From NCBI GenBank assembly GCA_021733925.1, contig JAIPJY010000023.1, forward strand, positions 40,247 through 104,246: a stretch of 64,000 bases of DNA, given 5' to 3'. The notes beneath the pieces are model-generated. The model was not told where the DNA came from. It saw nothing but the letters and a program-made list of their open reading frames with translations, and searched no databases. How positions within the stretch are numbered: the first letter of the stretch is position 1; the number at the start of each line of letters is the position of its first letter. The position numbers were made by a program, and so were the translations under genes. Source of the DNA: Prosthecobacter sp. GTDB lineage: Bacteria; Verrucomicrobiota; Verrucomicrobiia; Verrucomicrobiales; Verrucomicrobiaceae. Below are positions 8,240 to 29,079 of this stretch, in pieces.

Positions 8240-11200
8240 ATGAAAAGCTTCCTCACGCTCTTCCTTCTGTGTTTCACCGCAGTGCTGCACGCAGTCCCGC
8301 CCGTCGTCTTTAGCATTCTGCCAACCAGTGGCACGACCGCAGGCGGAACCACTGTGACGATCCTTGGCACGGCCTTCGACTTATCCACGGCCGTGACCTT
8401 CGGCGGTGTGGCCGTGGCCAGTTTCACGGTGGAGAGCAATCATATCATCACTGCTACCACCCCGGCACATGCTGCCGGCACTGTCAGTGTGGATGTCACC
8501 AATCCCAGTGGCACGAGTGCGGCGAACACGCTTTACACTTATTTTGCACCCACGGTGCAAATTGGACCGCCCTTCGCAGAATTTGTCGATCCCAATCCGG
8601 CAGCGGGGAATCAGTTTGGAGCCACGGTGGTGGCGCTAAACACGGGGAACGTGGTGGTCACCGCACCTTACGACGACGCGGGCGGGACGGACGCCGGGGC
8701 CGTTTACCTCTTCAACGGCGCCACCGGAGCGCTCATCAGCACGCTGACGGGTTCCACGGCCAATGATCGTGTGGGTGGCGGGGGTGTGAGGGTGCTGGGT
8801 AACGGCAACTATTTGGTGCACAGCGGAAATTGGAACAACGGAGCTGCAACCAATGCCGGCGCGGTGACGTGGGGCAGCGGCACGGCGGGGGTGAGCGGCG
8901 CGGTCAGTGCCGCCAACAGCCTCGTCGGTTCCACGGCCAATGACAGCCTGGGCAACGCTGGGGTGACGATTCTGAGGAATGGCAACTATGTGGTGGCAAG
9001 CTATCAATGGGACAACGGAGCCGTCGTTGATGCTGGAGCGGCGACCTGGGGCAGCGGCACGGCGGGAGTGAGCGGCGCGGTGAGTGCCAGCAACAGCCTC
9101 ATCGGCTCCACCGCCAATGACTATGTGGGCATCGGCGTGAGGGCACTGAGCAATGGCAACTATGTGGTGAACAGCTCCAACTGGGACAACGGAGCCGTCG
9201 TTGATGCCGGCGCGGTGACCTGGGGCAGCGGCACGACAGGGGTGGTCGGTGCGGTGAGCAGCAGCAACAGCCTCGTCGGCTCCACGGCCAGTGACCAAGT
9301 GGGCTACTCCAGCACGATGGCGCTGAGCAATGGCAACTATGTGGTGAACAGCCCCTACTGGGACAAAGGAGCCGTCGCTGATGCTGGAGCGGTGACCTGG
9401 GTCAACGGCACGTCTGGGATGGTCGGTGCGGTGAGCAGCAGCAACAGCCTCGTCGGCTCCACGGCCAGTGACCAAGTGGGCCGCAGCGGCGTGACCCCGT
9501 TGACCAATGGCAACTATGTGGTGGCAAGCTATCAATGGGACAACGGAGCTGTCGTTGATGCTGGAGCGGCGACTTGGGGTAGCGGTACGTCTGGGGTGAG
9601 CGGCGCGGTGAGCTCGATCAACAGCCTCGTCGGCTCCACAGCCAATGACAATGTGGGGGGGGGCGGCGTGTATACGTTGAGCAATGGCAACTATGTGGTG
9701 CGCAGCACTAATTGGGACAACGGAGCCGCCATCAATGCCGGAGCGGCGACCTGGGGCAGCGGCACTGCGGGGGTGACCGGTGTGGTGAGCTCGATCAACA
9801 GCCTCGTCGGCTCCACCGCCAATGACAATGTGGGCAACGTCTTGGTCCCCTTGACCAATGGCAGCTACGTGGTGCATAGCTCAATTTGGGACAACGGAGC
9901 CGTCTCTAATGCCGGAGCGGCGACCTGGGGCAGCGGCACGACTGGGGTGAGCGGCGTGGTGAGTTCCAGCAACAGCCTCGTCGGCTCCACGGCGAGTGAC
10001 AATGTGGGCGGCGGCGGCGTGACGGCACTAAGCAATGGCAACTATGTGGTGCGCAGCCAGAACTGGGACAACGGAGCCGCCATTAATGCCGGAGCGGCGA
10101 CCTGGGGCAGCGGCACGACTGGGGTGAGCGGCGCGGTGAGTTCCAGCAACAGCCTCGTCGGCTCCACGACCGGTGACACTGTGGGCAGCAGCCCTGTGAC
10201 GGCACTGAGCAATGGCAACTATGTGGTGGGCAGCCCCAACTGGGACAACGGAGCCGTCTTTAATGCCGGAGCGTCGACCTGGGGCAGTGGCGCGTCCGGG
10301 GTGAGCGGCGTGGTGAGTTCCAGCAATAGCCTCGTTGGCTCCGCCGGCAATGACCAAGTAGGCGGCAGCGTGACGGCGCTGAGCAATGGCAACTATGTGG
10401 TGCGCAGCGGTTTTTGGAACAGCGGTGCCGCCAATGCCGTCGGAGCGCTGACTTGGGGCAGTGGCACCACCGGGGTGAGCGGCGCGGTGAGTTCCAGCAA
10501 CAGCCTCGTCGGCTCCACGGCCAGTGACCAAGTAGGCGGCAGCGTGACGGCGCTGAGCAATGGCAACTACGTGGTGTATAGCTCATTTTGGGACAACGGA
10601 GCTGCTGCCAATGTCGGCGCGGCGACCTGGGGCAGTGGCACGACGGGGGTGAGTGGTGCGGTGAGCAGCAGCAACAGCGTGTTGGGCCAGTTGGCCAGCG
10701 CCGGCCTGCAACTCGCCAATCCGGACGATGTCAACGGCACTTTTTTTGCTGTGTTCCTCACTGAGGGGGGCGGGAAAGTCCGGCTCGGTTCCCAGAACGA
10801 TGGCCTCGGTCCCCCCCCAGCCCCCACGGTTACCAGTCTCGACATCACCAGCGGCAGCACGGCGGGCGGCACCAGCGTGACCCTCACCGGCACCGCCTTC
10901 ACCGGAGCCACGGGCGTGACCTTTGGCGGCGTGGCAGTGGCCAGCTTCATGGTGGTCAATGACACCACGATCACGGCCGTCACGGCAGCGGGCAGCGCAG
11001 GCAGCAGCAGCGTGGTGGTGACCACAGCGGGCGGCAGCAACGCGGCGAACACGCTTTACACCTTCGGCAACACCGCTCCCGTGATCACCAGCAATGGCGG
11101 TGGCGGCACGGCGGGCATCAACGTGGCCGAGAACACCACGGCTGTGACCACTGTCACTGCTACCGACTCCGAAGTGCCAGCGACGCAGAGCCTGACCTTC

Positions 11201-11599
11201 ACCAAGAGCGGCGCTGACGCGGCTCTTTTCACCCTCAACTCCAGCAGCGGCGCGCTCTCCTTCACCACCGCGCCGAACTTTGAAGCGCCTGCCGATGCAG
11301 GTGCCAACAACGTCTATGACGTTACGGTCACGGTCACGGACGACGGCACCGGTTTGCTGACCGACACCCAGGCTCTGAGTGTGACCGTCACGGATGTGAA
11401 TGAAGCGCCGAGCATTGCAGGCGACTCTGTCCAACTCGCCTACGAGACCGTGAATCCGACGCGTTCGGGCAGCAATATTGTCTATTCCGTCAACAATGCC
11501 GCCGCCCTGGCTGGCGCCACCTTCAGCCGTGTGCGCTACCGCATGGAATTGACGGTGGCTGGCACGCCGCGTTATGCAGAAACGACGTTTGATGCCTAG
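8240..11599 (+). CDS. Giant repeat protein, N-terminal part (signal peptide, TIG, 59-residue repeats, TIG, cadherin-like)
   Basis: The product starts with a cleavable-looking signal peptide (residues 1-18). A first IPT/TIG domain (about 20-105: FSILPTSGTTAGG, VTFGGVAV, ANTLYTY) is followed by an FG-GAP-like stretch. Eleven tandem 58-59-residue repeats with the core LSNGNYVV..P.WDNGA and ATWGSGT.GVSG occupy 8738-10677; they resemble the DUF5650 repeat family. A second TIG domain (10830-11080) and a cadherin-like domain (11085-11420, with NVAENTT, TATDSEV and VTDVNEAP) follow. The frame ends at TAG 11597-11599, after which the same frame continues. The codon at this place was probably TGG, giving DAWAGLNV, but that is an inference. 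A TTG 11 codons upstream also keeps the frame open but precedes the signal peptide. Confidence 0.8.
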   Translation: MKSFLTLFLLCFTAVLHAVPPVVFSILPTSGTTAGGTTVTILGTAFDLSTAVTFGGVAVASFTVESNHIITATTPAHAAGTVSVDVTNPSGTSAANTLYTYFAPTVQIGPPFAEFVDPNPAAGNQFGATVVALNTGNVVVTAPYDDAGGTDAGAVYLFNGATGALISTLTGSTANDRVGGGGVRVLGNGNYLVHSGNWNNGAATNAGAVTWGSGTAGVSGAVSAANSLVGSTANDSLGNAGVTILRNGNYVVASYQWDNGAVVDAGAATWGSGTAGVSGAVSASNSLIGSTANDYVGIGVRALSNGNYVVNSSNWDNGAVVDAGAVTWGSGTTGVVGAVSSSNSLVGSTASDQVGYSSTMALSNGNYVVNSPYWDKGAVADAGAVTWVNGTSGMVGAVSSSNSLVGSTASDQVGRSGVTPLTNGNYVVASYQWDNGAVVDAGAATWGSGTSGVSGAVSSINSLVGSTANDNVGGGGVYTLSNGNYVVRSTNWDNGAAINAGAATWGSGTAGVTGVVSSINSLVGSTANDNVGNVLVPLTNGSYVVHSSIWDNGAVSNAGAATWGSGTTGVSGVVSSSNSLVGSTASDNVGGGGVTALSNGNYVVRSQNWDNGAAINAGAATWGSGTTGVSGAVSSSNSLVGSTTGDTVGSSPVTALSNGNYVVGSPNWDNGAVFNAGASTWGSGASGVSGVVSSSNSLVGSAGNDQVGGSVTALSNGNYVVRSGFWNSGAANAVGALTWGSGTTGVSGAVSSSNSLVGSTASDQVGGSVTALSNGNYVVYSSFWDNGAAANVGAATWGSGTTGVSGAVSSSNSVLGQLASAGLQLANPDDVNGTFFAVFLTEGGGKVRLGSQNDGLGPPPAPTVTSLDITSGSTAGGTSVTLTGTAFTGATGVTFGGVAVASFMVVNDTTITAVTAAGSAGSSSVVVTTAGGSNAANTLYTFGNTAPVITSNGGGGTAGINVAENTTAVTTVTATDSEVPATQSLTFTKSGADAALFTLNSSSGALSFTTAPNFEAPADAGANNVYDVTVTVTDDGTGLLTDTQALSVTVTDVNEAPSIAGDSVQLAYETVNPTRSGSNIVYSVNNAAALAGATFSRVRYRMELTVAGTPRYAETTFDA
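8738..10677 (+). repeat. Eleven tandem 177-bp (59-residue) repeats, DUF5650-like
   Basis: Each unit encodes L(V/I)GSTA.D.VG, then LSNGNYVV.S..WDNGA, (V/A)TWGSGT.GVSG.VSS.NS. Ten of the units begin with a GSTA, GSTT or GSAG variant of the first motif, and the phase is 174-177 bp. The unit-to-unit DNA identity is high, so this tract is prone to recombination and to mis-assembly. The periodic WDNGA and NGNYVV motifs suggest repeated beta-blades. Confidence 0.85.
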
Positions 11600-11611
11600 G
11601 CCGGTCTGAAC

Positions 11612-14600
11612 GTGGCAGGCTTGAAGGTTCCGGATGGCAGCAACCTGCTCACCATCCAGCGCAACGTGACGAACTTGACGGTGGACTCGAACTATCCCGG
11701 CGTCGTCAATGCCACGGCTCAGACGGGACGGTTGGAGATCTGGCCCAGCAACTACAATCAAACGGCCTCAGGTGGTGTCGGTGGCTCCAGCAGCACCTTT
11801 GATTTTGACGATGGAGGCTTTGGCACGAGCGTGGGTCATGGCAGCTTTCAGGTTCATAACCTGTCTTCCGCCCCGATACAGACAGTTTTAGCCTGGAACA
11901 ATCATGGGGCGGCCAATCCTGAAACCGGTTTCGGCAACCAACCCACGACTAACCCTGACTGGACTTTTGCCACTTTGGGCACCACGGGCTGGAAGCTGCA
12001 GATTTCGATCATGACGCCGAATCTGCCCGCCACCTTTGCCCTGACGGAGGACGTGACGGGCAACCTGCTCTTCACTGGCACGCCCTTTGCAGATGACAGC
12101 GCCTCGCTGACGGTCACACTGGCGGTGGCAGACGGTGTCATCACCGGCAACGCGGGCACCGGCATCACGGTGGGCGGCACGGCCGTCTCACGGACCTTCA
12201 CCGGCACGGTGGCCGACCTCAACACCTACTTCACCACCGCTGGAAAAGTCACCTACCTCGGCGTCCTGAACAACGACACCGCACGGACGCTCACCACGAC
12301 CATTTCCGACGGCACCTTCAGCGCCAACACGGACAGCACGATCAACTTCGCGCCGGTGAATGACACACCATTGGATCTTGCACTGAGCGCCACAAGCATC
12401 GCGGAGAACGTGGGGGCAAATTCAACGGTGGGCACGTTGAGCACGACGGATGTCGATACGGGCGACACCTTCACCTATACGCTGGTGGCTGGCACCGGCA
12501 GCACGGACAATGCCGCGTTCAACATCTTGGGGAACGCCTTGCGCATCACCGCTTCCCCGAACTTTGAGGTGAAGAACAGCTACGACGTCCGGGTGCGCAG
12601 CACCGATGCGGGCGGGCTGTCCTTCGAGAAGCAGTTCACCATCAGCATCAGCAACGTGATCGAAGCGCCGGTGATCGCCTCTGCCACGAGCGCCAACTTG
12701 GCTCCCACGACCGCCACGCTCGGCGGGAACGTGACGAGTGATGGCGGCCTGGCGGTGACGGAGCGCGGGGTGGTGTATGCGCTGACGGCCACGAACAGCA
12801 GTCCGCAGATCGGCGGCACCGGAGTGACGAAACTCGTGGGCACGGGCACGACCGGGGTTTTCACGGTGGATGTGAGCGGCCTGAGCTCCAACAAGGACTA
12901 TTCGTATGCGGCCTACGCCCTCAATGGCGATGCCACGAGCTACACGAGCGTGGACACCTTCACCACGACGACCGACTTTGTGCCGGGAACGGGAGTCACG
13001 GTCACCTACAGCGGCGTCATCGGCGGCACGACGGGCGTGAGTATCACTGGCGGCGGCACGCTCGAACTGACTGGCCTGAACACCTACAACGCGAACACGA
13101 ACGTGGGGGACGGCACGATTTCCATCAACACGGTGGGCACCGGAGCCTCGCCGCAGTCCCTCGGCGCGGGCGGCACGGTGAACCTGGGTTCGCCGGGCAC
13201 CTCGTCGGGTGCGCTGATCTACACAGGCGGTGCGGGCACGCTGGACAAGGACATCAACGCGCTGGGCAACGGCGCGGATACCGTGCAGAACGCCGGCAGC
13301 GGGCTGCTGACGCTTTCCGGCACCCTCGACAAGACCGGCACCGTACTCACACTCAAAGGCGGGGCCAACGGTATCACCGTGTCAGGCTCCATCACGGGCA
13401 ACACCGGCAGCCCGAACTCCGACCTGATCGTGGACGGCGGACCGGTGACGCTGAACAGCGCAAACAGCTACAACGGCCCGACCTACATCATCAACGGCGG
13501 CACGCTCAATGCGAACGCGGTGGATGCGCTGCCGACGAGCCCGGCACGTTCGGCCATTCTCATGGACCAGAGCGGCACCGGCAGCTCTACGCTGGCACTT
13601 GGCGTCAGCCAGTCGGTGCTGTCCCTGACTGGAGCAGCCACCTCGGCCATCAATCTGAATGCCAATTCGCTGACCGTGGGAGACACCTCCGGCAGCACCA
13701 CCTTTGACGGCGTCATCAGCGGCGTGGGCGGCAGCCTCATCAAAGATGGCGCCAGCACCCTGGTGCTCAGCGGCACCAACACCTACACCGGCGGCACGAA
13801 TGTGACTGCGGGCACCATCGTGCTGGCCAACCAGAGCGGGTTCGGCACCGGCACCGTCACACTGGCCGGCGGGGTCAATTTCAGCACCTCCGGTTTTGAA
13901 GGCAACAGCGCCGGCGGCGCGCTTCCGAATGCCCTCGTCCTCAGCGGTGGCATGGTAAATGTGGATGTCAGCTTTGGTGCCAAGGACATCTGGATCAACA
14001 CAGGCGTCTCCGGCACCGGTGGTTTCTCCGTCACAGGCGCTGGCGCGATCATGCGCAACCCTGGGCTGATGCTCTCGGGCGCCAACACCTTCCAGGGCGG
14101 GGTGACCATCGCCAATCAGACCCGGGTCTCGATTGACAACAACACGTCCCTCGGAACTGGCGGCCTGCGGGCGGCCAGTGGCACTGGCACGCTCCGGGTG
14201 GCCGGCAACGTGTCCAATGTGGCGAACAGCATCGTGATCGCCAGTGGCGTGACCTTGAATGTCGAGGTGGACAGCGGGATTGGTGGTGTGCTTTCCGGCG
14301 TCATCTCCTCCGAAGGGGCCGGCGGCAGCCTGACGAAGAGTGATGCAGGCACGCTGACCTTGACCGGGGCGAACACCTACACGGGAGCTACGACGGTGAG
14401 CGCGGGCACCTTGCAAGCTGGCAGTGCCGTGGCATTCACCAACAAGGGGGCGCTGTCGATGTCCGGCAGCGGTGTCCTTGACCTCGGCGGGTTTGCCGTT
14501 GGCTTCACGGATGCGAGTGCCAGCGCGACAACCAACACCATCACCAACAACGGGGCCGCGAATGCCACGCTGAACTTTTCTAATTTGAACACTCAGATCA

Positions 14601-17600
14601 GCAGCCTCATCCAGGACGGAACCAGGACCCTGGCGGTGAGCTTTAGAAATGACAATTCGGCCAGCAACCTCTTTAAACTCGACAGCGCCAACACGTTCTC
14701 CGGCGGTGTGACCCTTTTGGACGGAAGCGCTGTTGGTTCCGGGTTTGGCTCGCGGCTAAGAATTAGCAATCTGGTCACCACCGTGGGATCTGCGGGCTCG
14801 ATTGTCAGCAGTCCCTTCGGCACCGGAGCCATCACCATCGGTCAGGTGGCCACTGACAAGGCTGGCATCTTGTTCGACACCACGGCCAACAACACCCTCG
14901 CCAATGCAATTGTCGTCAATACCGCACTGGGCAATGATCAGCCAGGTATTCGAGTGGACACCGCAGCCACGGGCCTTGTTTTGTCAGGACAGATAACCGC
15001 GAACTTGGCCAACGCGCTGTTCTCCAATGGCACGAGTGGCAGTGGCGTGGCGACGGTGAACCTGACGGGCCAGGTGACGGGTGCATTTGGTCTTGAGACC
15101 AATGCATCGGCTATCGCGGTGACTTTGAACAATGCGGCAGACAACAACGATTATGCTGGCAACACGATTACCGGGTCAACTTCCTTCTTGAACTTGGGCA
15201 GGGCCAACCAGATTCCCAACGGTGCGGCCAAGGGGAATGTGGTCAATGCGGGCACCTTGAATCTGAATGGCTTCAGTGAGACGATCAACGGCCTCAGCGG
15301 CGCGGGCACGATTGACGGCGTCAGCGGAACTCCGACACTGACCATCGGTGACAACGATGCGAGCAGCACCTACTCTGGTGTGATCAAGAACACTGCCGGC
15401 ACGCTGGCGCTGACCAAGACCGGCGCTGGCACGATGACTCTGGACGGTACGGCGGCCAACACCTACACCGGAGCCACGACAGTCAACGGCGGCGTGCTGG
15501 TGCTGAACAAGACGGGCGCGGGCAGTGAAAACGCGATTGCCGCCGGCGGCAGCATTGTCGTCAATTCTGGCGGCACCCTGCGTTTGGGCACCCAGGGGCA
15601 GATCAATGACAGCATCACCAGTTTCAGCATCAACGGCGGCACCTTCGACCTGCAGACTTTCACCGATGGGGTGAACTCTCAAATTGCGCTCACCAGCGGT
15701 TCCATCATTGGCGGAGACACAGGTTTCGTTCTTGCCCGCGGTGGCTACGCAGGCGCTGGCACCACCACGATTTCCAAGAGGATTTCCGTCCGAGCTGCAG
15801 ATGCGAACAGCGGGTTGTTTGATATCACAAGCGGCACGACTACGGTCAGTGGGGTCATTCACACGGACTCAGGAGGCGCTGCAGGCATTTCAAAGACCGG
15901 CACGGGCACTCTGGTGCTCAGCGGGGCGAGCACCTACGCGGGCGCCACGACGGTGAGCGCAGGCATCCTCAACATCCAGACCGCCACGGGTCTCGGTACC
16001 ACTGCGGGGAGCACCTCCGTCAGCAATGGCGCGACCTTGCAGTTGCAGGGTGGCATCACGGTGGGAGCGGAAGCGCTATCTCTCAATGGCGGCGCGGCCA
16101 GCGGTCAGACGGGGGCCTTGGTCAACGTCAGCGGCACCAACACTTACGGCGGTGCGGTCACGGTCACGGCCAGCAGCTCCATTTCCGCTGCCAGCGGCTC
16201 GGTGCTCAACCTCACTGGCGGGGTGATCAAAAACGGCACCGTGGCGACCTTCAACGGCGGGGGCACGATCAATGTGGGGACCGTGGGTATCAGCGGTGCT
16301 TCGGCCAACTCGGACCTCGTCATTGACGGAACCATAGTAAACCTGAATGTGGCCAACACCTACAATGGTCCGACCTTCATCCGCAACAGCGGCACGCTCA
16401 ATGCCAATGTGGTGGGCGCGTTGCCGACGGGAACGCGCACCGCGCTGACCTTTGACGGCACGGGAACGTCGGTGCTGACCCTGGGTGCGGCGCAGTCCGT
16501 GGCCTCCTTGACTGCGGCAGGTGCTGCGACGGTGACGCTCAACGCCAATACATTGACGGTAGGCACCAGCACCGGAAGCACGACCTTTGCGGGAGCCATT
16601 GGGGGCACGGGCGGCCTGACCAAGGATGGGGCGAGCACTCAGGTTCTTAGCGGTAGCAACGGCTACAGCGGCGCGACGACGGTGAGCGCAGGCACTTTGT
16701 CGATCACGGGTGACATCAATGCCTCCGCGACGATTGCGGTCAACGGCGGGCTGCTCTCCACGAGCGGAGCGGACATGCTGGCCAACACGGCGGCGGTGAC
16801 AGTGGCCGGCGGCACACTCACGGTGGGTGGCGCAGACACGGTGGGCACGCTGACAATGAGCAGCGGCATTATTGGCGGTTCTGCAACCCTGACGGCAACG
16901 ACCTACGGCCTGAGCGGCGGCACGGTGAATGGGAATCTGGGTACGGGAACGATCAACAGTTCGGGCACGGTGGCCCTCAACGGCACGGCTGGCGCGACCG
17001 TAGTAAATGTGACGGCTGGGACGCTGACTCTCGGAGCCAGTAGCGCGATCAACAGCGCCACGACGGTGGGCATCAGTGGTGGCAGCCTGACACTGGGAGC
17101 TTCCAACCAGATTGGCAATAGTGCGGCAGTGACGGTGTCCGGCGGCACTTTGGCGATGGGAGCCAACAGTGACACGGTGGGAACCGTGGTGTTGACCTCG
17201 GGCAGCATCACCGGCAGCACGGGTGTGCTTACCAGCACAGCGGCGTATGACATGCGTGCTGGCAGTGTGAGTGCGATTCTTGGCGGCACCGCCGGCCTGA
17301 ACAAGACGACGGCGGGAACGGTGACGCTGAGCGGCGCGAACACCTACACCGGCGCGACGACGATCACCACAGGCACCTTGCAGGTGGATGGTTCCCTGGC
17401 CGCTGGCAGCACGGTGGGAGTGGGCACGGCGGGCACGTTGAGCGGTTCGGGCACGATCAACGGCAACACGACCCTGACGGGAAGCGGCATCATTAACCTG
17501 ACCAACCCTGGAGTCATTGCTGGCACCTTGGGAGTGACCGGCGGCAACTGGAATGGCACGGGCAGCGTGACGGGCCTGGTGACCTCCAGCAGCGGCACCT

Positions 17601-20600
17601 TCACCATCGGCAGCGGGGCGAACTTGACGGCGAATGGCGATCTGAACGTCACCGGGGGCACGTTGGCCAGCGGAAGCGGCACGAGCACGATCACCGGCAG
17701 TGTGAACTACACCAGCGGCAGCAGCAGCACCTTTGGTGGGGTGATCGCCGGCAGTGGCAAGACGGTGACGATGAACAACGGGTCGGGCACCTTGACCTTG
17801 AGCGGCAACAACTCCTACACGGGATTGACTACGGTGAGCGCGGGCGTGTTGAACATTCAGAGCGCCAACGCCCTGGGAACAACGGCTGCGGGCACGAGCG
17901 TCACTTCGGGGGCTGCACTGCAAATTCAGGGCAGTATCACGACGGCGGCCGAGGCTTTGACCTTGAACGGCACGGGCGTCAGCAATACCGGGGCGCTGCG
18001 CAACATCAGCGGCACCAACGACTTCGCTGGTCTCGTCACGCTGGGCAGCGCGGCGCGGATCAACTCGGATGCAGGAACGCTGACGCTGAGCAACACGGGC
18101 ACGATCACGGGAGCATTCGGCCTCACGGTGGGTGGCGCGGGAAACACCACGATCAACAGCATCATCGGCACCACGGCGGGCGGCTTGACCAAGGATGGAG
18201 CGGGCACACTGACGCTCACGGGCGCAAACACCTACTCGGGCGGCTACACATCGGTCCAGGCCGGTACGCTTCAAGCCGGGGCCAACAACGTGCTCCCAGG
18301 CTCCGTGGAAGTGAAGTTCACCGGCACCCTTGATCTCAATGGCTTCAACGCCACGGTTTCGGGCAATACCATCGGAACTTCCAGTCTCTACTTCGGTGCC
18401 AATTCGGTAGGCCAGACAGCGACGGTCACCACCGGCGCAGGGACTTTGACGGTGAACGGGAACATCGGGGTGGACAGCAATGCCTACGGAACCAATCTCC
18501 TCAGCGGCAATCTTGATCTGGGGGGAGCGGTTCGCACCATTTCAGTGATCACCGGTGGCACGGGGGTCACCTTGACGATTTCAGCGGCGGTTTCCAACGG
18601 CGGTATAACCAAGACTCAGGGGGGCACATTGATTCTCTCCGGCAGCAACGGCTACAGCGGCGCAACGACGGTGAGCGCGGGCACCTTGTCCGTCACGGGT
18701 GACATCAACTCCTCCGCGACGATTGCAGTCAACAGCGGGCTGCTTTCCACGAGCGGGGCTAATAAACTGGCCGATGCTGCGGCAGTGACCGTGGCCGGCG
18801 GCACACTCACGATCGGCGGAAATGACACGGTGGGCACGCTGACGATGAGCAGCGGTGCCATTGGTGGTTCGGCTACCTTGACGGCAACGACCTACGGCCT
18901 GAGCGGCGGCACGGTGAATGGGAATCTGGGCACGGGAACGATCAACAGCTCGGGTACCGTGGCTCTCAACGGCACGGCGGGAGCGGCTGTGGTCAATGTG
19001 ACGGCGGGCAATCTGACGCTCGGAGCCAGCAGCGCGATTAACAGCGCCACCACGGTGGGCATCAGTGGGGGCAGCCTGACACTGGGAGCCTCCAACCAGA
19101 TCGGCAATAGTGCGGTGGTGACGGTGTCCGGCGGCACCTTGGCAATGGGAGCCAACAGTGACACGGTGGCGTCAGTCGTGTTGACCTCGGGCAGCATCAC
19201 CGGCAGCACGGGCGTGCTTACCAGCACAGCGGCGTATGACATGCAGGCTGGCAGCGTGAGTGCGATTTTGGGCGGCAGCGCCGGCCTGAACAAGACGACA
19301 GCGGGAACGGTGACGCTGAGCGGCGCGAACACCTACACAGGCGCAACGACGATCAGTGCTGGTAAGTTAACACTCCAGGGAACTTATGGTTCGTCTGGAT
19401 TTGCCATCTCATCGGGGGCCGTTCTTGAGTTCAACAGCGGTTCATCCCAAGACTATGGCACTGCCAACTTTTCAGGGGCTGGGACACTTCTAAAAACGGG
19501 TACAGGTGAACTCAGGTGGGGAGGGAGTGCCGCCACATTTGCGCTGACTTCTGGATCACTCATTGACATCCAGGGTGGATTGGTGGTTGGCGGGAACTTT
19601 GCCAACGAAGTTTGGACCAACAACAAATCGGATCTGAACATTGCCGGCGGAGCTTTCTTTGCGGGGGTGGAAGCCAACGTCCGAGTCAATGCACTGACAG
19701 GTGGTGGTACACTTTCCACGGGCTTCTCCGGCAGCGGTTACACCAGTTTTACCCTTGGGGTTGACAATGGAGGAGGGACCTTTTCAGGAACTATCACCGA
19801 TGGTGTAAGCAGCTTGGGTGGGTATTCGGATTTTGGTGGTGCGGTTTCCACAGGCAACCTTACCAAGGCAGGCACCGGAACGCAGATTTTAACGGGCGCG
19901 AACACCTACACCGGCACGACGACGGTGAGCGCGGGCATCCTCAACATTCAGAATGCCACGGGCCTCGGCACCATCGCAGGTGGCACTTCGGTGAGCAATG
20001 GAGCGACTCTGCAATTGCAGGGTGGCATCACGGTGGGGGCGGAGGCGCTCTCGCTCAATGGCGGTGCGGCCAGCGGTCAAACGGGGGCCTTGGTCAACGT
20101 CAGCGGTACCAACACCTACGGCGGTGCGATCACGGTGACGGCCAGCAGTTCCATCTCGGCGGCCAGCGGTTCCGTGCTCAACCTCACGGGTGGGGTGGTC
20201 AAGAATGGTACTGTGGCGACCTTCAACGGCGGCGGCACGATCAATGTGGGGACCGTGGGCATCAGCGGTGCTTCGGCCAACTCGGACCTCGTCATTGACG
20301 GAACGGTGGTGAATCTCAATGTGGCCAATACTTACAATGGCCCGACCTTCATCCGCAACAGCGGCACGCTCAATGCCAATGTGGTGGGCGCGTTGCCGAC
20401 GGCAACGCGCACCGCGCTGACCTTTGACGGCACGGGAACGTCGGTGCTGACCCTGGGTGCGGCGCAGTCCGTGGCCTCCCTGACTGCGGCGGGAGCTGCG
20501 ACAGTGACACTCAATGCGAATACGCTGACCATCGGCGCAGCCAGTGGCAGCACCACCTTTGCAGGAATCATTGGTGGCACGGGCGGTCTAATCAAGGATG

Positions 20601-21046
20601 GAGCGAGCACGCAGATCCTCACCGGCACGAACACCTTTACCGGTACGGTGACCGTCAACAACGGAACGCTGGCGGCCAACGGTCCGAACTCCATCAATTC
20701 AGCCCTGGGTTCGGCCAGTTCCATCGTCATCAACAATGGCGGAACGATCACGGTGGGTGGTGACAACTCGTTTACCGGCGGGCTAGATCCGACAGGGGCA
20801 GGAAAGTTCACGCAGATCAATGCGGGCGGTCTGCTCAGCAACGCGGGTTCTTCCACCAACCATCTTTTTCATCTGGTGATGAACGGAGGGACGCTCTCGG
20901 CCACGACGGCTAACTCTTACTTTGGCAATTGGAATTTCGACTATGGGGTCGCCACGCTTGGCAACGGGTCCACTTCGCTGATCACCGGTGGCAATGCCAC
21001 GCTGACGCAAATTGGGGGGCACAATTTTCGACATTGGCGCGGGTGA
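11612..21046 (+). CDS. Giant repeat protein, middle part (cadherin-like and beta-strand repeats)
   Basis: This frame is the direct continuation of the N-terminal part after the TAG; the GTG at 11612 is only the first possible start after that stop. It begins with about 120 residues resembling a surface-associated beta domain ([19 protein letters not shown]). Then come cadherin/Calx-type domains ([28 protein letters not shown]) to about 12660 and a fibronectin-like module ([10 protein letters not shown]). From about 13010 onwards it is built of autotransporter-associated beta-strand repeats (PATR, Pfam PF12951 type), each with a motif like [20 protein letters not shown] and G/S/T/N-rich strands between, predicted to fold as a right-handed beta-helix. 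It ends out of frame at 21046, after the G6 run. Large blocks inside it are duplicated with later parts. Confidence 0.8.
15940..16640 (+). repeat. Duplicated block A (second copy 19912-20612)
   Basis: This 700-bp block recurs 3,972 bp downstream at 19912-20612 with no net insertion or deletion across the whole length, judged from matching landmarks at 15961/19933 and 16621/20593. Both copies encode [30 protein letters not shown] and [16 protein letters not shown]. The borders fall in or next to the ANTYTGATT-type motif. Confidence 0.85.
16652..17367 (+). repeat. Duplicated block B (second copy 18641-19356)
   Basis: This 716-bp block recurs 1,989 bp downstream at 18641-19356 with constant offset, so without net indels. 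Both copies start at [17 protein letters not shown] and end at [12 protein letters not shown]. They share long near-identical stretches encoding [24 protein letters not shown] and [10 protein letters not shown]. In the first copy B directly follows block A; in the second, B' precedes A'. Confidence 0.85.
17340..17830 (+). repeat. Duplicated block C (second copy 21568-22058)
   Basis: This 490-bp block recurs at 21568-22058 with a constant offset of 4,228 bp. Both copies encode [36 protein letters not shown] and [13 protein letters not shown]. It starts and ends at PATR motifs. Confidence 0.85.
17818..18240 (+). repeat. Duplicated block D (second copy 21155-21580)
   Basis: This 420-bp block recurs at 21155-21580 with an offset of 3,337-3,340 bp, one codon longer in the second copy (GAFGLTV against GAGLGLTV). 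Both encode [26 protein letters not shown] and [15 protein letters not shown]. The order is C-D in the first region but D'-C' in the second. Confidence 0.85.
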
Positions 21047-24000
21047 CACCCTCAATGTGCAGACAAAGATTGATGCGGGGGGGGCGGGTGTGACTGACTC
21101 GGGATTGACCAAGAGCGGCGTTGGAACCATGACGCTCAGCGGAGCCAACACTTATGCCAGTGCAACGACGGTGAGCGCCGGTGTGCTCAACATACAGAAC
21201 GCAAGCGCGCTGGGGTCGGTGGCCGCTGGGACGAGTGTGACTTCTGGTGCGGCGCTGCAAATTCAGGGTGGCATCACGACTCTCGCCGAGGCGCTGACCT
21301 TGAACGGCTTGGGTGTCAGCAATGATGGCGCGCTGCGCAACATCAGTGGAACCAACAGCTACGCGGGCTTGGTGACCCTCGGCAGTGCGACGCGGATCAA
21401 CTCGGACTCCGGCACCTTGGCCTTGAGCAACACGGGCACGATCACTGGCGCAGGTCTGGGACTGACGGTGGGCGGGGCAGGCAACACGACGATCAACAGC
21501 ATCATCGGTACGACCACCGGCACACTGACAAAGGACGGCGCCGGCACCGCGATCCTCACCAATGCCAACACCTACACGGGAGCCACCACGATCACGGCGG
21601 GCACGTTGCAGGTGGATGGATCTATCGCCTCAGGCAGCACAGTGGGAGTAGGCACGGCAGGAACGTTGAGCGGTTCTGGTACTGTCAGCGGCAATGCCAC
21701 CCTCACGGGCAACGGTATCATCAACCTGACCAATCCGGGTGTCATTGCGGGCACCTTAGGAGTGACTGGTGGCAGGTGGAACGGCGCGGGCAGTGTGACG
21801 GGTCTGGTAACCTCCAGCAGCGGCACCTTCACGATCGGCAGTGGAGCGAACCTCACTGCAAACGGTGACCTGAATATCACCGGTGGCAGCATTGCCAGTG
21901 GCAACAGTGCCAGCACGATCACCGGCAATGTGAACTACACCAGCTCCAGCAACAGCAGCTTTGGCGGGGTGATCGCCGGCAGCGGCAAGACGCTGACGAT
22001 GAACAACGCCTCGGCCACACTGACCTTGAGTGGCACCAGCAGCTACACCGGGGCGACGACCTTGACGGCTGGCAGTCTGGTAGTCAATGGCAGCATCGGT
22101 AGCAGCAGCTTGACGACGATCGACGGCGGGACCTTGATGGGCACGGGCACGGTGGGGGCGATTCAGCTCAACAGCGGCGGCACGATCAATCCCGGAGGAT
22201 TGTCGTCTGCGGGGACGCTGAGCACGGGGAACATTGCCATTGTGGACGGGCAGCTCCACTTCAACATCGGCGGCACAGGCAGCTACGACCAGCTCAACGC
22301 CACCGGCACGATCAATCTCGCCGCGGGTGGTGCAGGTGCCAAGCTGGTGCTGGATGCGATCAGCAGTTACACCGCCACGCTGAACAACGCCTTCACGCTC
22401 GTCAGCAACGATCTGACGGATGCCATTTCAGGGGCGTTTGCCAAAGGCACCTTTGGAGGCACGAAGATAGTGACGCTCAGCGGAGTGGATTATGTGGAAA
22501 ACCTGCTGGGTTCAAACTATTACGGGCGCATCAACTACACAGGTAATTCGACCGATCCTGGCACGCTGGCTACGGCGGGCAACGATATCGTCATCAAGGT
22601 GGTGACCCCTGAGATCACCGTGACGGAGGGGGCCACTACGCTGAGCGACAATGGTGGGTATAATTTTGGCGATGTGGACAAGCTGGTGCCAGCGGTGCCT
22701 TTAACGAAGACCTTCACCATCAAGAACGACGGCGAGGTGGACCTGATGAATATCGCGATTACCGGGCCGACCGGTGCAGCGGCGGCGGATTACAGCGTCA
22801 ATACGACCGGTACGGCGACGAACCTGATCCCCGGAGCGAGCACGACGTACACGGTGACCTTCGATCCGCGCCGGATCGGCACGCGCAACGCCTACATATC
22901 GATCACCAGCAACGATCTGGACGAAGCCACCTTCGACATCCCGTTGACCGGGGTGGGATCAATCGGTCGGGATATCCTGGAGCCATGGACGGTGACCTAC
23001 GGAGGACCGGATGCTCCGGGCACTTCGCGCGACGGCGCGGCTACGGCGGTGGCGGTGCAGAAGAGCACGACGAGCGACGAGGCGATGGCGGTGTTTGCCA
23101 CAGGTTACACGTCCAATGCCTCGGGCACACGGGACATTTACACAGCCAAGTATGATCCAGTGACCGGGGTCAAGCAGTGGCAGCAGACCTTCAATGGCGC
23201 GGCCAACGGCCATGATGAGGGAAGGGCCATCGCGGTGGACGGCAATGGGGACGTTGTAATTACCGGTTACACGACCAATAGCAGCACTGACACTGACGCG
23301 TATGTCGCCAAGTATGCTGGTGCGGATGGCACGCTGCTGTGGCAGAAGATCTACGCGGGTGCGGGCGGCAGCTACGATGGTGGTAACATCGTGGCGGTGG
23401 ACGCGGCCAACAACGTGGCTGTGGCAGGCTATGGAACGGCCACCAGCGGGGCCGCGCTGGACATTTTGGCCGCTCGCTACACCGTGGCAGGCGCGACGAT
23501 TTTTGAGAGACTGGTGGATGGCGGTGCCAACCGCGAGGATGTGGCCTACGGGGTGGCCGTGGACACGGCGGGCAACCTTGCTGTGGCTGGCTATGCCGGG
23601 AGCGTCTCCACCGGGAAGGACTTCCGCATTCTGCATCTGGCCGCCGGGAGCGGGAGCACCAACTGGCAGTACACCAAGAGCGGCAGCAGCAGCACCGACG
23701 ATCTGGCCTATGACGTGACCTTCGATGCTTCCAACCAGGTGGTTGCAACTGGCACGGTGCGGTCCATCAACTATGATTTCTATACTGTGAAGGTGAGCAG
23801 CGGCGGCGGGTTGCTCTGGGAAAGGCAGTGGAACAGCACCTACAACTCCTCTGACGCCAGTTATGATGTCGCCGTTGACGGTAATGGCGACGTGATCGTG
23901 GGTGGTGCCAGCTACCAGTATGCCAATTCCTCTGATGGGTATGTGGCCAAATACAACGGCACGAGCGGGGCGCTGATCTGGGACCGCCGCTTCATCGGTG

Positions 24001-26087
24001 CCGCCGGACTGACCGATGCCATCACCACGCTGGACCTAGACGTGCTCGACAATGTCATCGTCACCGGCTACACCGGCAATGCTGCGGCCAATTATGACGT
24101 CCTGACGGCCAAGATGCTGGCCGCCGATGGCGGCCTGCTGTGGCAGAGGTCGTTCGACGGCACTGCCGCCAAACATGACCTCGGGCTGGCCGTGGCCGTC
24201 TCTCCCGACGGCAATGTGTTCGTCGGAGGCTACACAACGACGGGAGCCAACACGACCGACTTCCTGGTGAAGAACTACCAGGCGGAGCACGCCAACACCC
24301 AGAACGCACAGACCATCTCGTTTGCCAATCCCGGTGCGCAGAGCGCCGGCGCCGACCTGTCCTTGTCGGCCACGGCCAGCAGCGGATTGACGGTGATGTT
24401 TGCCGTCGTCAGTGGTCCGGCCGTGATCAGTGACAGCAGCAACATGCTGCTCAACTTTACCGGCAGCGGCAGTGTCACCGTGCGCGCCTCGCAAAGCGGC
24501 AACTCCGTGTATGCAGCCGCCACGCCGGTGGACCAAACCTTCACGGTGAACAAATCCGCCCAGACCATCAGTTTCACGCTGCCCGGCAGCCTGACCTCCA
24601 CGGCGCAGTGGCCACTCACGGGGGTGGCCACCAGCGGCCTGGCGGTCACTTACAGCGTGCAAAGCGGTCCCGGCACCATCACCGGCGGAGTACTGAGCTT
24701 CAGCGGTTCCGGAGTGGTCACCGTGCGAGCCAGTCAGGCAGGCGACGTGCGCTTCAACGCTGCAGCGAATGTGGACGCCACGATTACCTCAGTAAACCAT
24801 GCACCGATAATCATCTTGGATAATATTGCAGAGAACTGGCGTGATCGCTATGCGGGCAGTGGAGCAGGACAGGGCAACGACCTCGCGTTGCAACTCAGTG
24901 GCAACGATGCCGTGGCTGGTTTCGTGGGTGGATACACCACAACTGGCACCGGCAAAGACCTGTATCTCGTCAAATACCTCGCCGATGGCACGCTGGTGTG
25001 GTCCGTCATCAGCGGTGCTACTGGTGATGACGAAGCCATGGCCGTGAAGGTCGATGGCAATGGCGATGTCTTCGTCGTCGGGTACACCACAGGCACCGGC
25101 CAGGACGTTTATGTGGCCAAGTACAACGGCGGCACCGGAGCCAGGATTTGGTCCTACACCTACAACGGCACAGGCAATGGCAACGATGTCGGCGTCTCAC
25201 TGGACCTGGAAGGCACCAGCAATGTGGTGGTGGGTGGCTACGCGGTGGGCTCGGGCACCAGCAACGACTTCTTCGCCGCCAAGCTCGACCAGAGCACTGG
25301 TGCCGTCGTGTGGACCAGTGTGCAGAACCGCAGCGGTGCCAATTCGGATGTGCCCGCCAAAGTCGTTGTGGGTACGGACGGCAGCGTGGTGCTCGCCGGC
25401 ATCTCCGCTAACGACGCCTGGACGGTCAAACTTGCAGCAGCCACTGGCAGCAAAATCTGGCAGCAGGTTTACAATTACGCCAACAAACCGGACGCCGTGC
25501 GCGGACTCGCACTTGATGCCGCCAATAACGTCATCATCGCCGCCTATTCGCAGGGAGCCAACTATGACATGTACACCGCCAAGTACGCAGCGCTGGATGG
25601 CAGCATAATCTGGGGGCAGCGCTACAACAGCAGCTTCAACTCCTCCGATGCACCTTGGGACATGGTGCTCGATGAAGACGCCAATGTCTATGTTACGGGC
25701 ACCTCCTACCGTTCGGCCAGTGTGCGCGATGGCATGACGCTGAAGTATGCCGGTCTGGACGGCACCCTGGTTTGGGAAGGGCGCTACAACGGATCAAACA
25801 ATGGCAATGATGAGAACACCTCCATCGCGCTCGACGGCATCGGTAATCCGGTAGTAAGCGGCTACACCACCAACGCCGACACTACAACCGACGTTTATTT
25901 GGCCAAGCACAACAAAACTCCCGGGGACATCCGGTGGCAGAAGACCTTCGACGGCGACAACAATAAAAACGACAGTATCAAAAAAGTGAAAGTGGATCCC
26001 AACGGCAACGTCTGGATGACGGGCTCTGCCACCGGGAGCAGCGGGCTTTTGGAGGTGCTCGTTCTGCGCCACATTCCTAGTTTTTAA
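21012..26087 (+). CDS. Giant repeat protein, C-terminal part (last PATR units, ASH-like domain, two SBBP propellers)
   Basis: This frame is entered from the middle part by dropping one G of the run at 21014-21019; the apparent TTG start is not real. It carries the last beta-strand repeats to about 22600. An ASH/choice-of-anchor-D-like domain (22606-22970) contains [11 protein letters not shown] and [16 protein letters not shown] first SBBP-type beta-propeller (22975-24285) has blades such as [11 protein letters not shown] and [14 protein letters not shown]. Two immunoglobulin-like modules (24300-24800: AQTISF...[11 protein letters not shown]) and a second propeller (24830-26070) follow. It ends in VLRHIPSF with no membrane anchor, sorting motif or barrel. 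Its secretion route beyond the signal peptide is therefore unclear. Confidence 0.8.
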
Positions 26088-26138: not shown

Positions 26139-26903
26139 ATGAACTTCCCGCAGCTAAAAACCCTCCTCATTCTGCTGTTCCTCAGCCATGGGCTAACCCT
26201 CCGTGTCAGCGCCACGCAGATCATCAACGCCGGACCAAGCATGAGTTTGGTGCAGGGGGATGCCGCCTCTTTCAACGCCCAGTTCTTTGATGCCGATGGC
26301 AATAGCGGTGTGAGCATTCGTGCGGTGCATATCGCCACCGGGCAGAACATCGGCCAGTTCGTTCGCAACAACTCCAATGGCGACCTGCTATGGACCTGTG
26401 ACACCAGCACGCTGCCCACCGGGACCAATCCTGTGCAGCTTATCGCCACGGATCCGGCAGGAGCCAGCACGGTCGTGTCGTTCGCATTGCAAATCAGTCC
26501 GGCAAGCACGGTCCAGCAGTGGCGGCAGAATTATTTCGGCAGCAGCCAGAACAGCGGTGCGGCTCTGGACGGCGCTGACCCCGACGGCGATGGTCTGAAC
26601 AACCGTGCAGAATTTGCTTTTGGCCTCAACCCGAAAGTCGGCGGATCCGACGTTGGAGGCCGCGTTGAATCCAATGACAGCAATGATGGCAAAATGCGCG
26701 CTATTTTCAGGCGCCGCAAAGACTACCTAAGCTCCGGACTCAACTACATCTATGAGTTCAGCAGTGATCTGCAGACGTGGGAGACAGGCACCGTTACACC
26801 GCAGATTCTGGGAGACGATGGGACGATGCAAAGCCTCACTCTGGATTTTCCTGTGATGAGTTCCGGCCAGCCGAGCAGGTTCTTCCGCACTCGCCTCCAG
26901 TAG
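26139..26903 (+). CDS. Small secreted protein with Ca-binding-like DxDGDG motif
   Basis: This 254-residue protein has a signal peptide (residues 1-26, KTLLILLFLSHGLTLRVSA). A domain of about 100 residues of bacterial Ig type follows (GPSMSLVQGDAASFNAQFFD, then LPTGTNPVQLIATD). Next comes the segment DPDGDGLNNRAEFAFGLNP at about 147-165, which resembles a calcium-binding thrombospondin type 3/EF-hand-like loop and is common near the C-terminus of verrucomicrobial secreted proteins. A C-terminal beta domain ends in SRFFRTRLQ. It begins 51 bases after the giant gene on the same strand and may be an accessory or partner of it. I do not recognise a defined function. Confidence 0.65.
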   Translation: MNFPQLKTLLILLFLSHGLTLRVSATQIINAGPSMSLVQGDAASFNAQFFDADGNSGVSIRAVHIATGQNIGQFVRNNSNGDLLWTCDTSTLPTGTNPVQLIATDPAGASTVVSFALQISPASTVQQWRQNYFGSSQNSGAALDGADPDGDGLNNRAEFAFGLNPKVGGSDVGGRVESNDSNDGKMRAIFRRRKDYLSSGLNYIYEFSSDLQTWETGTVTPQILGDDGTMQSLTLDFPVMSSGQPSRFFRTRLQ

Positions 26904-27019: not shown

Positions 27020-27940
27020 ATGTCAGTCGGAAGCCCATGTCACATTCCGGTGCTTTTTTTGATCCACCGTCGTCTCGGGCCTGCCACCCGGGTTATGGCG
27101 GCATTGAAACTCGCGCAGCCTGAAGTGCTGCTGATCGCCGCAGACGGGCCAGGTGGTGATGAAAAGTGCGAGAAGGTGAGGGAACGGGTGGTCAACAGCA
27201 TTGACTGGCCATGTCAGGTAGAAACGCGTTTTCTGGATGAACAACAAGGCTGTCGGAGAGCGGTCTCATCCGCTTTGGACTGGGCCTTTGGTTTGCATGA
27301 GCAGTTGATCATTCTGGAGGACGACTGCGTGCCTCATCCGAGTTTCTTTGCGTTTTGTGCAGCCATGCTGGATCGGTTCAAAGATGAGCCCGAAGTGATG
27401 CAGATCTGTGGCTGCAATCTGACCGGCATGAGGCCGGCGGAGCAGAGTTATTTTTTCTCGCGGTTTGGTCCCATCTGGGGCTGGGCCTCCTGGCGCCGCG
27501 CCTGGCAGGACTATGATGTCGAAATGAAAGCATGGAGCGAACTGAGAAATTCCGCGCAGCTGGGCCAGCTCTGTCCTGAGCCCTTTGAAGCTGGCTGGCG
27601 TCGTGAGGTGCTGGACGCGGTGTATCGAGGAGAAGTGGACACCTGGGACTACCAGTGGGCCTTTGCCAAACTGCGCTGCGGAGGCCTGAACATCGTGCCT
27701 GCGGTCAATCTGGTATCAAACATCGGCTTTGGACCGGATGCGACCCACACCATGAACTCCGCTGACCCACGGGCAGACATGGCGACGCAGGAACTTTCCG
27801 CACCCTGGCAGCATGCACACAAGATCATGGCATGGCAGGAGTCAGACCGTGCTTATTTGACCCAGGTCGTAGGCCTGCCCGACAGCGTCTGGTCGTTCAA
27901 GGGACTGCGTCGCTGCCTGCGCATATTTTTTAACCGATGA
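27020..27940 (+). CDS. GT-A type glycosyltransferase (nucleotide-diphospho-sugar transferase fold)
   Basis: This 306-residue protein starts with a strand-helix pattern (PVLFLIHRRLGPATRVMAALK) and contains an acidic metal-binding motif in LIILEDDCVPHPSF (about 99-112), as in GT-A glycosyltransferases. The motif GPIWGWASWRRAW (about 154-166) is typical of the small family often annotated as hemolytic-protein-HlpA-like or nucleotide-diphospho-sugar transferase in glycan clusters. It is predicted to be cytoplasmic, and the donor sugar is unknown. The stop overlaps the start of the pyruvyl transferase gene (ATGA at 27937), so they form an operon. The spacer of about 116 bases after the secreted protein gene probably holds the promoter. 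Confidence 0.75.
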   Translation: MSVGSPCHIPVLFLIHRRLGPATRVMAALKLAQPEVLLIAADGPGGDEKCEKVRERVVNSIDWPCQVETRFLDEQQGCRRAVSSALDWAFGLHEQLIILEDDCVPHPSFFAFCAAMLDRFKDEPEVMQICGCNLTGMRPAEQSYFFSRFGPIWGWASWRRAWQDYDVEMKAWSELRNSAQLGQLCPEPFEAGWRREVLDAVYRGEVDTWDYQWAFAKLRCGGLNIVPAVNLVSNIGFGPDATHTMNSADPRADMATQELSAPWQHAHKIMAWQESDRAYLTQVVGLPDSVWSFKGLRRCLRIFFNR

Positions 27941-29079
27941 AACGCGTTTGTCTCATTTCGACAGTGAATCACAACGTCGGCGACGACTTTGTGCGTGAAG
28001 GCATCCTGTGCCTGCTGCGCGAAGTGTTCGGCGCGGTCGAAGCCTGTGTCATTCACAAACATTTCCCGGTCACGGTACGTGGTGAGCCGTGGTCGCTGGT
28101 GGATCAACTGACACGGGGGGTGCCGAACTGGTTGTCCTGGCGAAGTCATATTTCAAGTGCGGCGGATGTTCTGCCCATGAATCCTTTGGCGGACCTGGTG
28201 CTGAGCAGTGATTTGGTCGTGCAGTGCGGTGCTCCCGTGTATTGGAAAAATGTCTGGTCCACATGTGCGCAGACGGAGTGGTTCGCGCCGCTCATAGAGC
28301 AGCGGTGGAGGAAGCTCGAACGACGCGTGCCGTTGCTGAACCTTGGGGCTGGCTCCTGCCAGGCCTGGGGCAGTGATGGCACGGAAATTGTCGAGGACGC
28401 GGAGTGCCGGTCCTTCATTGATCGCTTTACCAGTTGGAGCGCCCTGACCACGGTGCGTGATTCTTTGGCGCAGCGCATTGTGAGCCAGTGCGGTCATGAG
28501 GTGCCACTGCTGCCTTGCCCGTCCATCTTTACGCCTGGATCGTTGCGCCTGCAGCCCGGGACGGGCGAATACATAGCGCTCAATTACATGCCTCAGGGGG
28601 GGCACTACGATCTCGCAGGAGACGGAGCACCGGCCCGGCAGCGCTGGGAGGACGCCTTCTGCAAGGCGGCGCGTGAGTTGGCCCGGCACCATGCATGTTT
28701 GCTGATCTGTCATGACAGGCAGGAGCATGCGGAAGCGGAGCGGTTGCTGCCTGAGATACCGCGCTTTCACAGTCTGGACTGGCGGGAGTATCTGCAGGCT
28801 TATTCTCGCTGTCGCATCGCGGTGGTCAATCGCGTTCATGGGGCCGTGGTCGCGGCGGCGATGGGCCGGCAGGTGCTGCTGACCGGCAATGATACTCGTC
28901 TGCTCGCGGCGGCCGAAGTTCCGGGACTCATCGTCCTGCCATTGTCTGAGGTGGTTGACTCATTCTCTGAGCGAGTGGCAGAACTGCTACTCGTACCCGC
29001 TGCGTCGCCATCCGTGAAATGGATCGAAACCACAAGATCGCACTATTTGGAACTGCTGCGATCCACCTTGCTGGCATGA
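27937..29079 (+). CDS. Polysaccharide pyruvyl transferase family protein
   Basis: This 380-residue protein matches the polysaccharide pyruvyl transferase family (CsaB/WcaK/GumL type, PF04230), which adds ketal pyruvate from PEP to sugars. Visible features are the N-terminal NVGDDFVREG loop, VLSSDLVVQCGAPVYW, LLNLGAGSCQAWG and, near the C-terminus, the family hallmark VVNRVHGAVVAAAMGRQVLL with its NRxHG motif. Length is normal. It is translationally coupled to the gene upstream (ATGA) and to the GT9 gene downstream (ATGATGC at 29076). Pyruvylation would add negative charge to the glycan. The acceptor sugar cannot be inferred. Confidence 0.8.
   Translation: MKRVCLISTVNHNVGDDFVREGILCLLREVFGAVEACVIHKHFPVTVRGEPWSLVDQLTRGVPNWLSWRSHISSAADVLPMNPLADLVLSSDLVVQCGAPVYWKNVWSTCAQTEWFAPLIEQRWRKLERRVPLLNLGAGSCQAWGSDGTEIVEDAECRSFIDRFTSWSALTTVRDSLAQRIVSQCGHEVPLLPCPSIFTPGSLRLQPGTGEYIALNYMPQGGHYDLAGDGAPARQRWEDAFCKAARELARHHACLLICHDRQEHAEAERLLPEIPRFHSLDWREYLQAYSRCRIAVVNRVHGAVVAAAMGRQVLLTGNDTRLLAAAEVPGLIVLPLSEVVDSFSERVAELLLVPAASPSVKWIETTRSHYLELLRSTLLA

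What the first reader, a model, noticed from the sequence alone, without database searches (positions are those of the whole stretch)
8240..26087. A ~5,950-codon repeat protein gene interrupted by exactly one TAG and one extra G
Frames 8240-11599 and 11612-21046 are the same frame split by TAG 11597-11599. The switch to 21012-26087 is explained by one extra G in the G6 run 21014-21019. The whole span then has exactly 5,949 codons including the stop. Such huge genes rarely survive long as pseudogenes with only two lesions, so either the inactivation is very recent, the lesions are switches, or the assembly is wrong.
Basis: seen in the sequence. Interest (0 to 1): 0.7.

Follow-up and report, generated by a model that had tools for sequence, protein, structure and literature searches.

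The report
Giant surface-protein gene with two breaks
A giant gene for a bacterial surface protein carries one stop codon and one frame slip in this draft genome, but the three matching genes found in relatives are whole and the part behind both breaks still looks like a working gene, so the breaks are either very new or errors in the assembly.

Summary
In detail: frames 8240-11599, 11600-21046 and 21006-26087 are pieces of one gene, split by a TAG and by a slip in a 41-base interval holding a G6 run. The genome is a draft (7.3 Mb, 127 contigs) related to a Verrucomicrobiaceae MAG. The product would be a secreted multi-domain surface protein with PATR repeats beside a polysaccharide locus. Giant PATR frames are common here. 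Syntenic homologues in three relatives are unbroken frames of 6199, 4693 and 4617 codons. Five of five copies read at the TAG column have tryptophan. The last 1094 codons, behind both breaks, show dN/dS 0.14-0.19 and no excess amino-acid change. Three more giant genes in this assembly break at G7-G8 runs; in the two with close orthologues, three of three are in frame without so long a run. So it is not an old pseudogene, and evidence for a switch is weak. The breaks are very recent mutations or consensus errors; only reads can decide.

The parts
8240..11599 (+). First piece of the giant gene: signal-peptide-like start, TIG domain, DUF5650 repeats, second TIG, cadherin-like domain (just below cut-off), then a conserved domain cut by TAG
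   Evidence: signal peptide judged by eye
11597..11599 (+). In-frame TAG; 5 of 5 homologous copies read at this column (4 genomes) carry tryptophan and an open frame
11600..21046 (+). Second piece, same frame as the first: rest of the interrupted domain, then PATR / TIGR02601 beta-strand repeats
21014..21019 (+). G6 run inside the only interval (21006-21046) in which the reading frame can change
21006..26087 (+). Third piece, shifted frame: PATR repeats, choice-of-anchor D domain (about 22611-22922), delta-60-like repeats (below the family cut-off), stop at 26085-26087
26139..26903 (+). Small secreted-looking protein; homologous (39-40%) to the C-terminal module fused to the giant protein in G015; a separate frame in G001 and G022 (74%, 73%)
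27020..29079 (+). Conserved neighbours (27020-27940 without Pfam match; 27937-29079 polysaccharide pyruvyl transferase) that fix the synteny

Best explanation
The gene encodes a giant secreted surface protein: an N-terminal part with TIG, DUF5650 and cadherin-like domains, a long PATR beta-helix stalk and a C-terminal part with choice-of-anchor D and delta-60-like repeats. By its repeats and its place beside a polysaccharide locus it probably serves attachment or the cell-surface matrix (inferred). It was whole and under selection until very recently. The two breaks are independent small events, a change to TAG in a conserved tryptophan column and a one-base slip at a G run. Each is either a very recent mutation in the sampled cells or an error of the draft consensus; I put about even odds on at least one being an error. 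Shown: frames, domains, intact syntenic relatives, low dN/dS. Inferred: role at the surface and the age of the breaks.
For: Syntenic homologues in G001, G022 and G015 are single open frames. The TAG column is tryptophan in 5 of 5 copies read, from 4 genomes. The last 1094 codons give dN/dS 0.189 (W-G001), 0.137 (W-G022) and 0.136 (G001-G022); W's dN to G022 (0.193) is below that of G001 to G022 (0.250), so its lineage shows no relaxation. TAG ends 71 of 357 sampled frames, so it is an ordinary stop here. Breaks at G7-G8 runs hit three other giant genes. In C74 and C32, 3 of 3 orthologues each are in frame there and have no run longer than G5, and dN/dS is about 0.07-0.22 on both sides. Relatives' giant-gene stretches gave 0 candidate breaks in 471 kb with the same filter.
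Against: If the breaks were mere consensus errors they should hit all genes alike, yet the G-run breaks found lie in giant repeat genes: 4 of 57 G/C runs of 6 or more (55 once two runs counted in overlapping frames are counted once) against 0 of 169 in other genes, p about 0.003-0.004, or about 0.05 after scaling the second group by its lower sensitivity. Relaxed constraint, a switch or poor assembly of repeats would each explain that. No orthologue carries the exact repeat unit at the second site; only remote units (30-34%) were found in G001 and G022, so the frame there is judged from the flanks. The third sister gene with a G-run break (C93) has no close orthologue to test (best 56%). The relatives' stretches were picked for long open frames, which biases them towards zero. 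In G011 the neighbours are present but no giant frame lies in the 22 kb before them, so the gene is not universal.
Confidence: 0.82

Rival explanations
1. Consensus or assembly error at one or both sites: the gene is whole in the organism. Long G runs in repetitive, G+C-rich genes are miscounted, and mixed strains or paralogues put a minority base at the TAG.
For: Draft of 127 contigs. Three further breaks at G7-G8 runs in the same assembly, one about 0.5 kb from a contig end (C93). Orthologues in frame in the two genes testable. Two more frame breaks, a split sulfatase and a split hydrolase-like gene, lie within about 2.2 kb of each other on C66, and a 25-base tandem duplication breaks another gene. 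Purifying selection behind the breaks. The GeneTack survey expects single frameshifted genes confirmed by homologues to be sequencing errors rather than genuine indels (PMC3711429, passages).
Against: The break is at a G6 run while G9, G8 and C8 in the same gene are in frame. A substitution to TAG is not a homopolymer error. The G-run breaks found are confined to giant repeat genes. No stop lies inside any of 82 sulfatase matches, and only one of those genes is split. No read data.
Confidence: 0.42
2. Real, very recent inactivation: both lesions are true mutations, fixed or segregating, in an accessory surface gene that this lineage has just stopped needing.
For: Break density is higher in giant repeat genes (4 G-run breaks in 227 kb against none found at such runs in 821 kb of other coding DNA). 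One nonsense change corresponds to about 0.33% neutral divergence, 95% upper bound about 1.6%. The gene is not universal in the genus.
Against: No acceleration of amino-acid change in this lineage. Two independent lesions with no other visible decay.
Confidence: 0.4
3. Phase variation: slippage in G runs switches giant surface proteins on and off, with the G6 run one such switch.
For: Four of the 27 PATR genes that I count in the capped list are out of frame at a G6-G8 run. G runs of 8 or more in own giant genes are 8 against 4.3 (sd 1.9) expected. Long guanine repeats in two capsule genes led to the suggestion of slippage phase variation in the verrucomicrobium Akkermansia muciniphila (PMC3048395, passages).
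Against: G runs of 7 or more are not enriched over synonymous shuffles (14 against 13.7). The tract is not conserved in orthologues in 2 of 2 testable genes. A G6 run is short for a switch, and longer runs in the same gene are in frame. The TAG is not reversible by slippage.
Confidence: 0.08
4. Programmed recoding: ribosomes read through the TAG and shift at the G run.
For: The frames behind both sites stay open and constrained.
Against: The 5 copies read have a sense codon at the TAG column and the 3 syntenic genes have no frame change; TAG is an ordinary stop in this genome. The GeneTack survey requires a conserved site for this class (PMC3711429, passages).
Confidence: 0.02
5. Three real, separate genes.
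For: GTG 11612 and TTG 21012 can serve as starts.
Against: Relatives carry them as one frame; the first cut falls inside a conserved domain.
Confidence: 0.02

Closest known systems
PATR / TIGR02601 autotransporter-associated beta-strand repeat proteins
   Same: 12 stretches of PF12951 in the second piece and 3 in the third, over the curated cut-off for the whole piece; same counts with TIGR02601
   Different: No autotransporter barrel family was found in the three pieces at E 0.001, and no PEP-CTERM-like tail such as I see by eye in some sister genes of this genome
Giant genes of planctomycetes (PMC5177795, passages read)
   Same: Genes above 5 kb, many per genome; [quoted passage not shown]
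   Different: This one is broken in two places in the assembly and comes from a Verrucomicrobiaceae relative
Singleton frameshifted genes of the GeneTack survey (PMC3711429, passages read)
   Same: A frame change seen in one genome with unbroken homologues; the authors expect homologue-confirmed singletons to be sequencing errors rather than genuine indels
   Different: Here a nonsense change lies in the same gene

Membership tests
PATR beta-strand repeat surface protein | Several PF12951 / TIGR02601 repeats above cut-off | tested here: met
Classical autotransporter (type Va) | C-terminal translocation barrel | tested here: not met
   No barrel family in the three pieces at E 0.001; so it is not filed as an autotransporter
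PEP-CTERM sorted protein | C-terminal PEP motif, hydrophobic stretch and basic tail (recalled definition, also described in PMC4960237 passages) | tested here: not met
   C-terminus read directly; no such model in the NCBIfam scan
Old pseudogene | Relaxed selection and accumulated lesions | tested here: not met
   dN/dS 0.14-0.19 over 1094 codons behind both breaks; two lesions in all
Phase-variable contingency gene | Conserved or over-represented hypermutable tract at the frame change | tested here: inconclusive
   Not conserved in the two sister genes with orthologues; G>=7 runs not enriched, G>=8 mildly so. Not testable at 21014 itself, for want of an orthologous unit
Phase-variable contingency gene | Both run lengths present in a population | not testable with these tools
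   no reads
Programmed frameshift or stop read-through | Site conserved across homologues | tested here: not met
   5 of 5 copies lack the stop; 3 of 3 syntenic genes lack a frame change

The most novel reading that the evidence does not exclude
Slippage at G runs acts as a random off-switch over the whole set of giant PATR surface proteins of this bacterium: about 4 of 27 are off in this assembly, giving a population with varied surfaces, while in ordinary genes such slips are not seen.
Probability: 0.07. Interest if true: 0.55.

Novelty: new member of a known kind. Interest (0 to 1): 0.2.

Why it matters
Mostly as a caution: in this clade long repeat genes are normal, and a broken one in a draft genome says little until reads are checked. 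If the breaks are real, it is a snapshot of a giant surface gene at the first moment of loss. If the G-run slips prove to be a switch, a large family of giant surface proteins in an environmental phylum would be phase-variable.

Tried and rejected
Old pseudogene: rejected by low dN/dS and lack of acceleration. Recoded TAG: rejected by ordinary TAG use. Three genes: rejected by homologues. A first version of the frame model with cheap gene ends explained the breaks away as tiny gaps; it was re-run with dearer gene ends. A first repeat motif was too strict and found one PATR gene only; loosened. A first orthologue alignment had wrong orientations; redone. The prediction of the interrupted domain from the G015 copy was poor (mean pLDDT 36.7) and is not used; no fold search was run. 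Comparing the pieces around the TAG with G015 by dN/dS gave near-saturated values and is not used.

Literature: (any two of 'verrucomicrobi', 'giant genes', 'beta strand repeat') 22 papers, 15 listed, none about such breaks judging from titles and abstract starts; ('autotransporter-associated beta strand repeat' with 'verrucomicrobi') 0 papers; (three of 'phase variation', 'homopolymeric', 'verrucomicrobi', 'giant') 13 papers, 12 listed; (MAG, homopolymer, frameshift, pseudogenes, indel errors, all five) 0 papers; 7 papers. Papers seen as passages only: PMC5177795, PMC3711429, PMC3048395, PMC4960237.

Census details: of the 19 own-genome rows I accept 6 as true breaks (two in the window, L062, L066, L067, L077). 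The other 13 I set aside as ordinary neighbouring genes or chance frames, 4 after reading their DNA and 9 from the short translations, none by a homology test. Two further breaks in L063 show only in the unfiltered list; the filter loses them to a nearby ATG. L063 was fetched because of the split sulfatase, and many other stretches because they hold PATR genes, so the sample is not random.

Full report
What is there. The window is G000:C21:40247-104246 of a draft genome of 7,315,188 bases in 127 contigs. The only named relative found is a Verrucomicrobiaceae MAG, JABTUN01; the tool says records of the window's own genome may be left out there. The three frames of the finding are confirmed. The frame can change only within 21006-21046, which holds the G6 run 21014-21019.

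What the protein is. Pfam and NCBIfam give, from start to end, TIG (2 stretches), DUF5650 (11 stretches), a cadherin-like domain (just below cut-off), PATR / TIGR02601 repeats (12 stretches in the second piece, 3 in the third), a choice-of-anchor D domain and delta-60-like repeats below cut-off. The start looks like a signal peptide (by eye). Downstream lies a polysaccharide locus with pyruvyl transferase, glycosyltransferases, a Wzt-like ABC protein and acyltransferases; a UDP-glucose dehydrogenase lies upstream. Attachment or matrix function is an inference from this.

The first break. The TAG cuts a conserved domain. Both flanks of it match copies in G015, G009, G018 and two in G033 (5 and 7 of 56 genomes had a match to the two flanks, own included). 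All five copies carry tryptophan in the TAG column in an open frame. Seven further, weaker matches were not read at that column. TAG is the stop of 71 of 357 sampled frames, so the code is ordinary.

The second break. No relative has the same repeat unit at this spot; remote units of the same shape (30-34% identical) lie elsewhere in the G001 and G022 genes and run on unbroken into the next repeat. The third piece matches, colinear to the last residue, the ends of unbroken frames in G022 (63.6% over residues 10-1692) and G001 (60.5% over 40-1692); its match in G015 (38.5%) ends shortly before the fused C-terminal module. These three genes are syntenic: behind them lie orthologues of 27020-27940 and 27937-29079 (91% and 92% identical in G001) and, as a separate frame in G001 and G022 or fused in G015, the 26139-26903 protein. 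The pyruvyl transferase search matched 13 of 48 genomes. Of its other strong matches I read G032, G025, G057, G010 and G011 and found no giant gene: the contig ends within about 1-8 kb in the first four, and in G011 no giant frame lies in the 22 kb before the transferase. A partial match in G031 was not followed.

Selection. Over 1094 codons behind both breaks dN/dS is 0.189 (W-G001), 0.137 (W-G022) and 0.136 (G001-G022); dS is high (1.1-1.8), so these ratios are rough. dN from W to G022 is 0.193 and from G001 to G022 0.250. So the tail has not been drifting faster in this lineage. Only 1.7% of substitutions in this gene create a stop; one nonsense change corresponds to about 0.33% neutral divergence with a 95% upper bound of about 1.6%.

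How unusual is a break here. The PF12951 search of the own genome scored 150 of 408 candidates; the 150 matches lie in 29 open frames, by my count 27 genes, with frames up to 10,656 residues. Four of the 27 are out of frame somewhere: this one, and those on C32, C93 and C74 at G8, G7 and G8 runs; of the C125 gene with the 1569-residue frame only part was read. In C32 and C74 the three closest orthologues (G027, G029, G030) are in frame and have no run longer than G5 there; inside the genes no other frame-breaking difference appears in the aligned 3.4 kb (the C74 alignment has a two-base gap past the gene end). dN/dS is 0.07-0.22 on both sides of those runs. C93 has no close orthologue (best 56%). 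In 1.278 Mb of own-genome sample 19 candidates passed an automatic filter, 6 of which I accept. Sensitivity of that filter in simulation was 96 of 150 in giant repeat genes and 55 of 150 in other genes; without the filter 126 and 113. In 471 kb of relatives' stretches none passed, but those were chosen for long frames. Of 82 sulfatase matches none has a stop inside; one gene is split between frames.

Switch or error. G-run breaks found: 4 of 57 G/C runs of 6 or more in giant repeat genes (55 distinct, as two runs sit in overlapping frames), 0 of 169 elsewhere (p = 0.003-0.004; about 0.05 after scaling the second group by the filter's sensitivity). Own against relatives' giant genes is 4 of 45 against 0 of 35 G runs (p = 0.13). 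G runs of 7 or more in own giant genes are as frequent as synonymous shuffling gives (14 against 13.7); those of 8 or more are 8 against 4.3 (sd 1.9). These numbers do not carry a switch, nor do they exclude one. Excess in giant genes can also come from relaxed constraint or from poor assembly of repeats.

Conclusion. Ordinary until reads say otherwise.

Noticed in passing
window 8240-26087 against 27020-29079: The giant gene is far more diverged from its syntenic homologue in G001 (dS about 1.1 in its last 1094 codons; the N-terminal DUF5650 part has no clear counterpart there) than its two neighbours (dS about 0.2): the locus looks mosaic or replaced by recombination.
   Followed up: partly
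window 26139-26903: Separate small protein with its own signal-peptide-like start here, a separate frame in G001 and G022, but fused as the C-terminal module of the giant protein in G015.
   Followed up: partly
L066 about 3600 (-), L067 about 10246, L077 about 11642: Three other PATR genes of the same genome are out of frame at G8, G7 and G8 runs.
   Followed up: partly
L063 about 3535 and about 5746 (C66): Two neighbouring hydrolase-type genes, one a sulfatase, are each split by a frame change without a long homopolymer at the switch.
   Followed up: no
L062 about 3171 (-, C66): A 25-base tandem duplication breaks the frame of a gene.
   Followed up: no
L031, L032 (G033): Two related giant genes sit at contig ends in G033, probably a tandem pair that broke the assembly.
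   Followed up: no
genus-wide: Open frames up to 14,657 residues (G002) turn up among relatives matching one of these repeat proteins.
   Followed up: no
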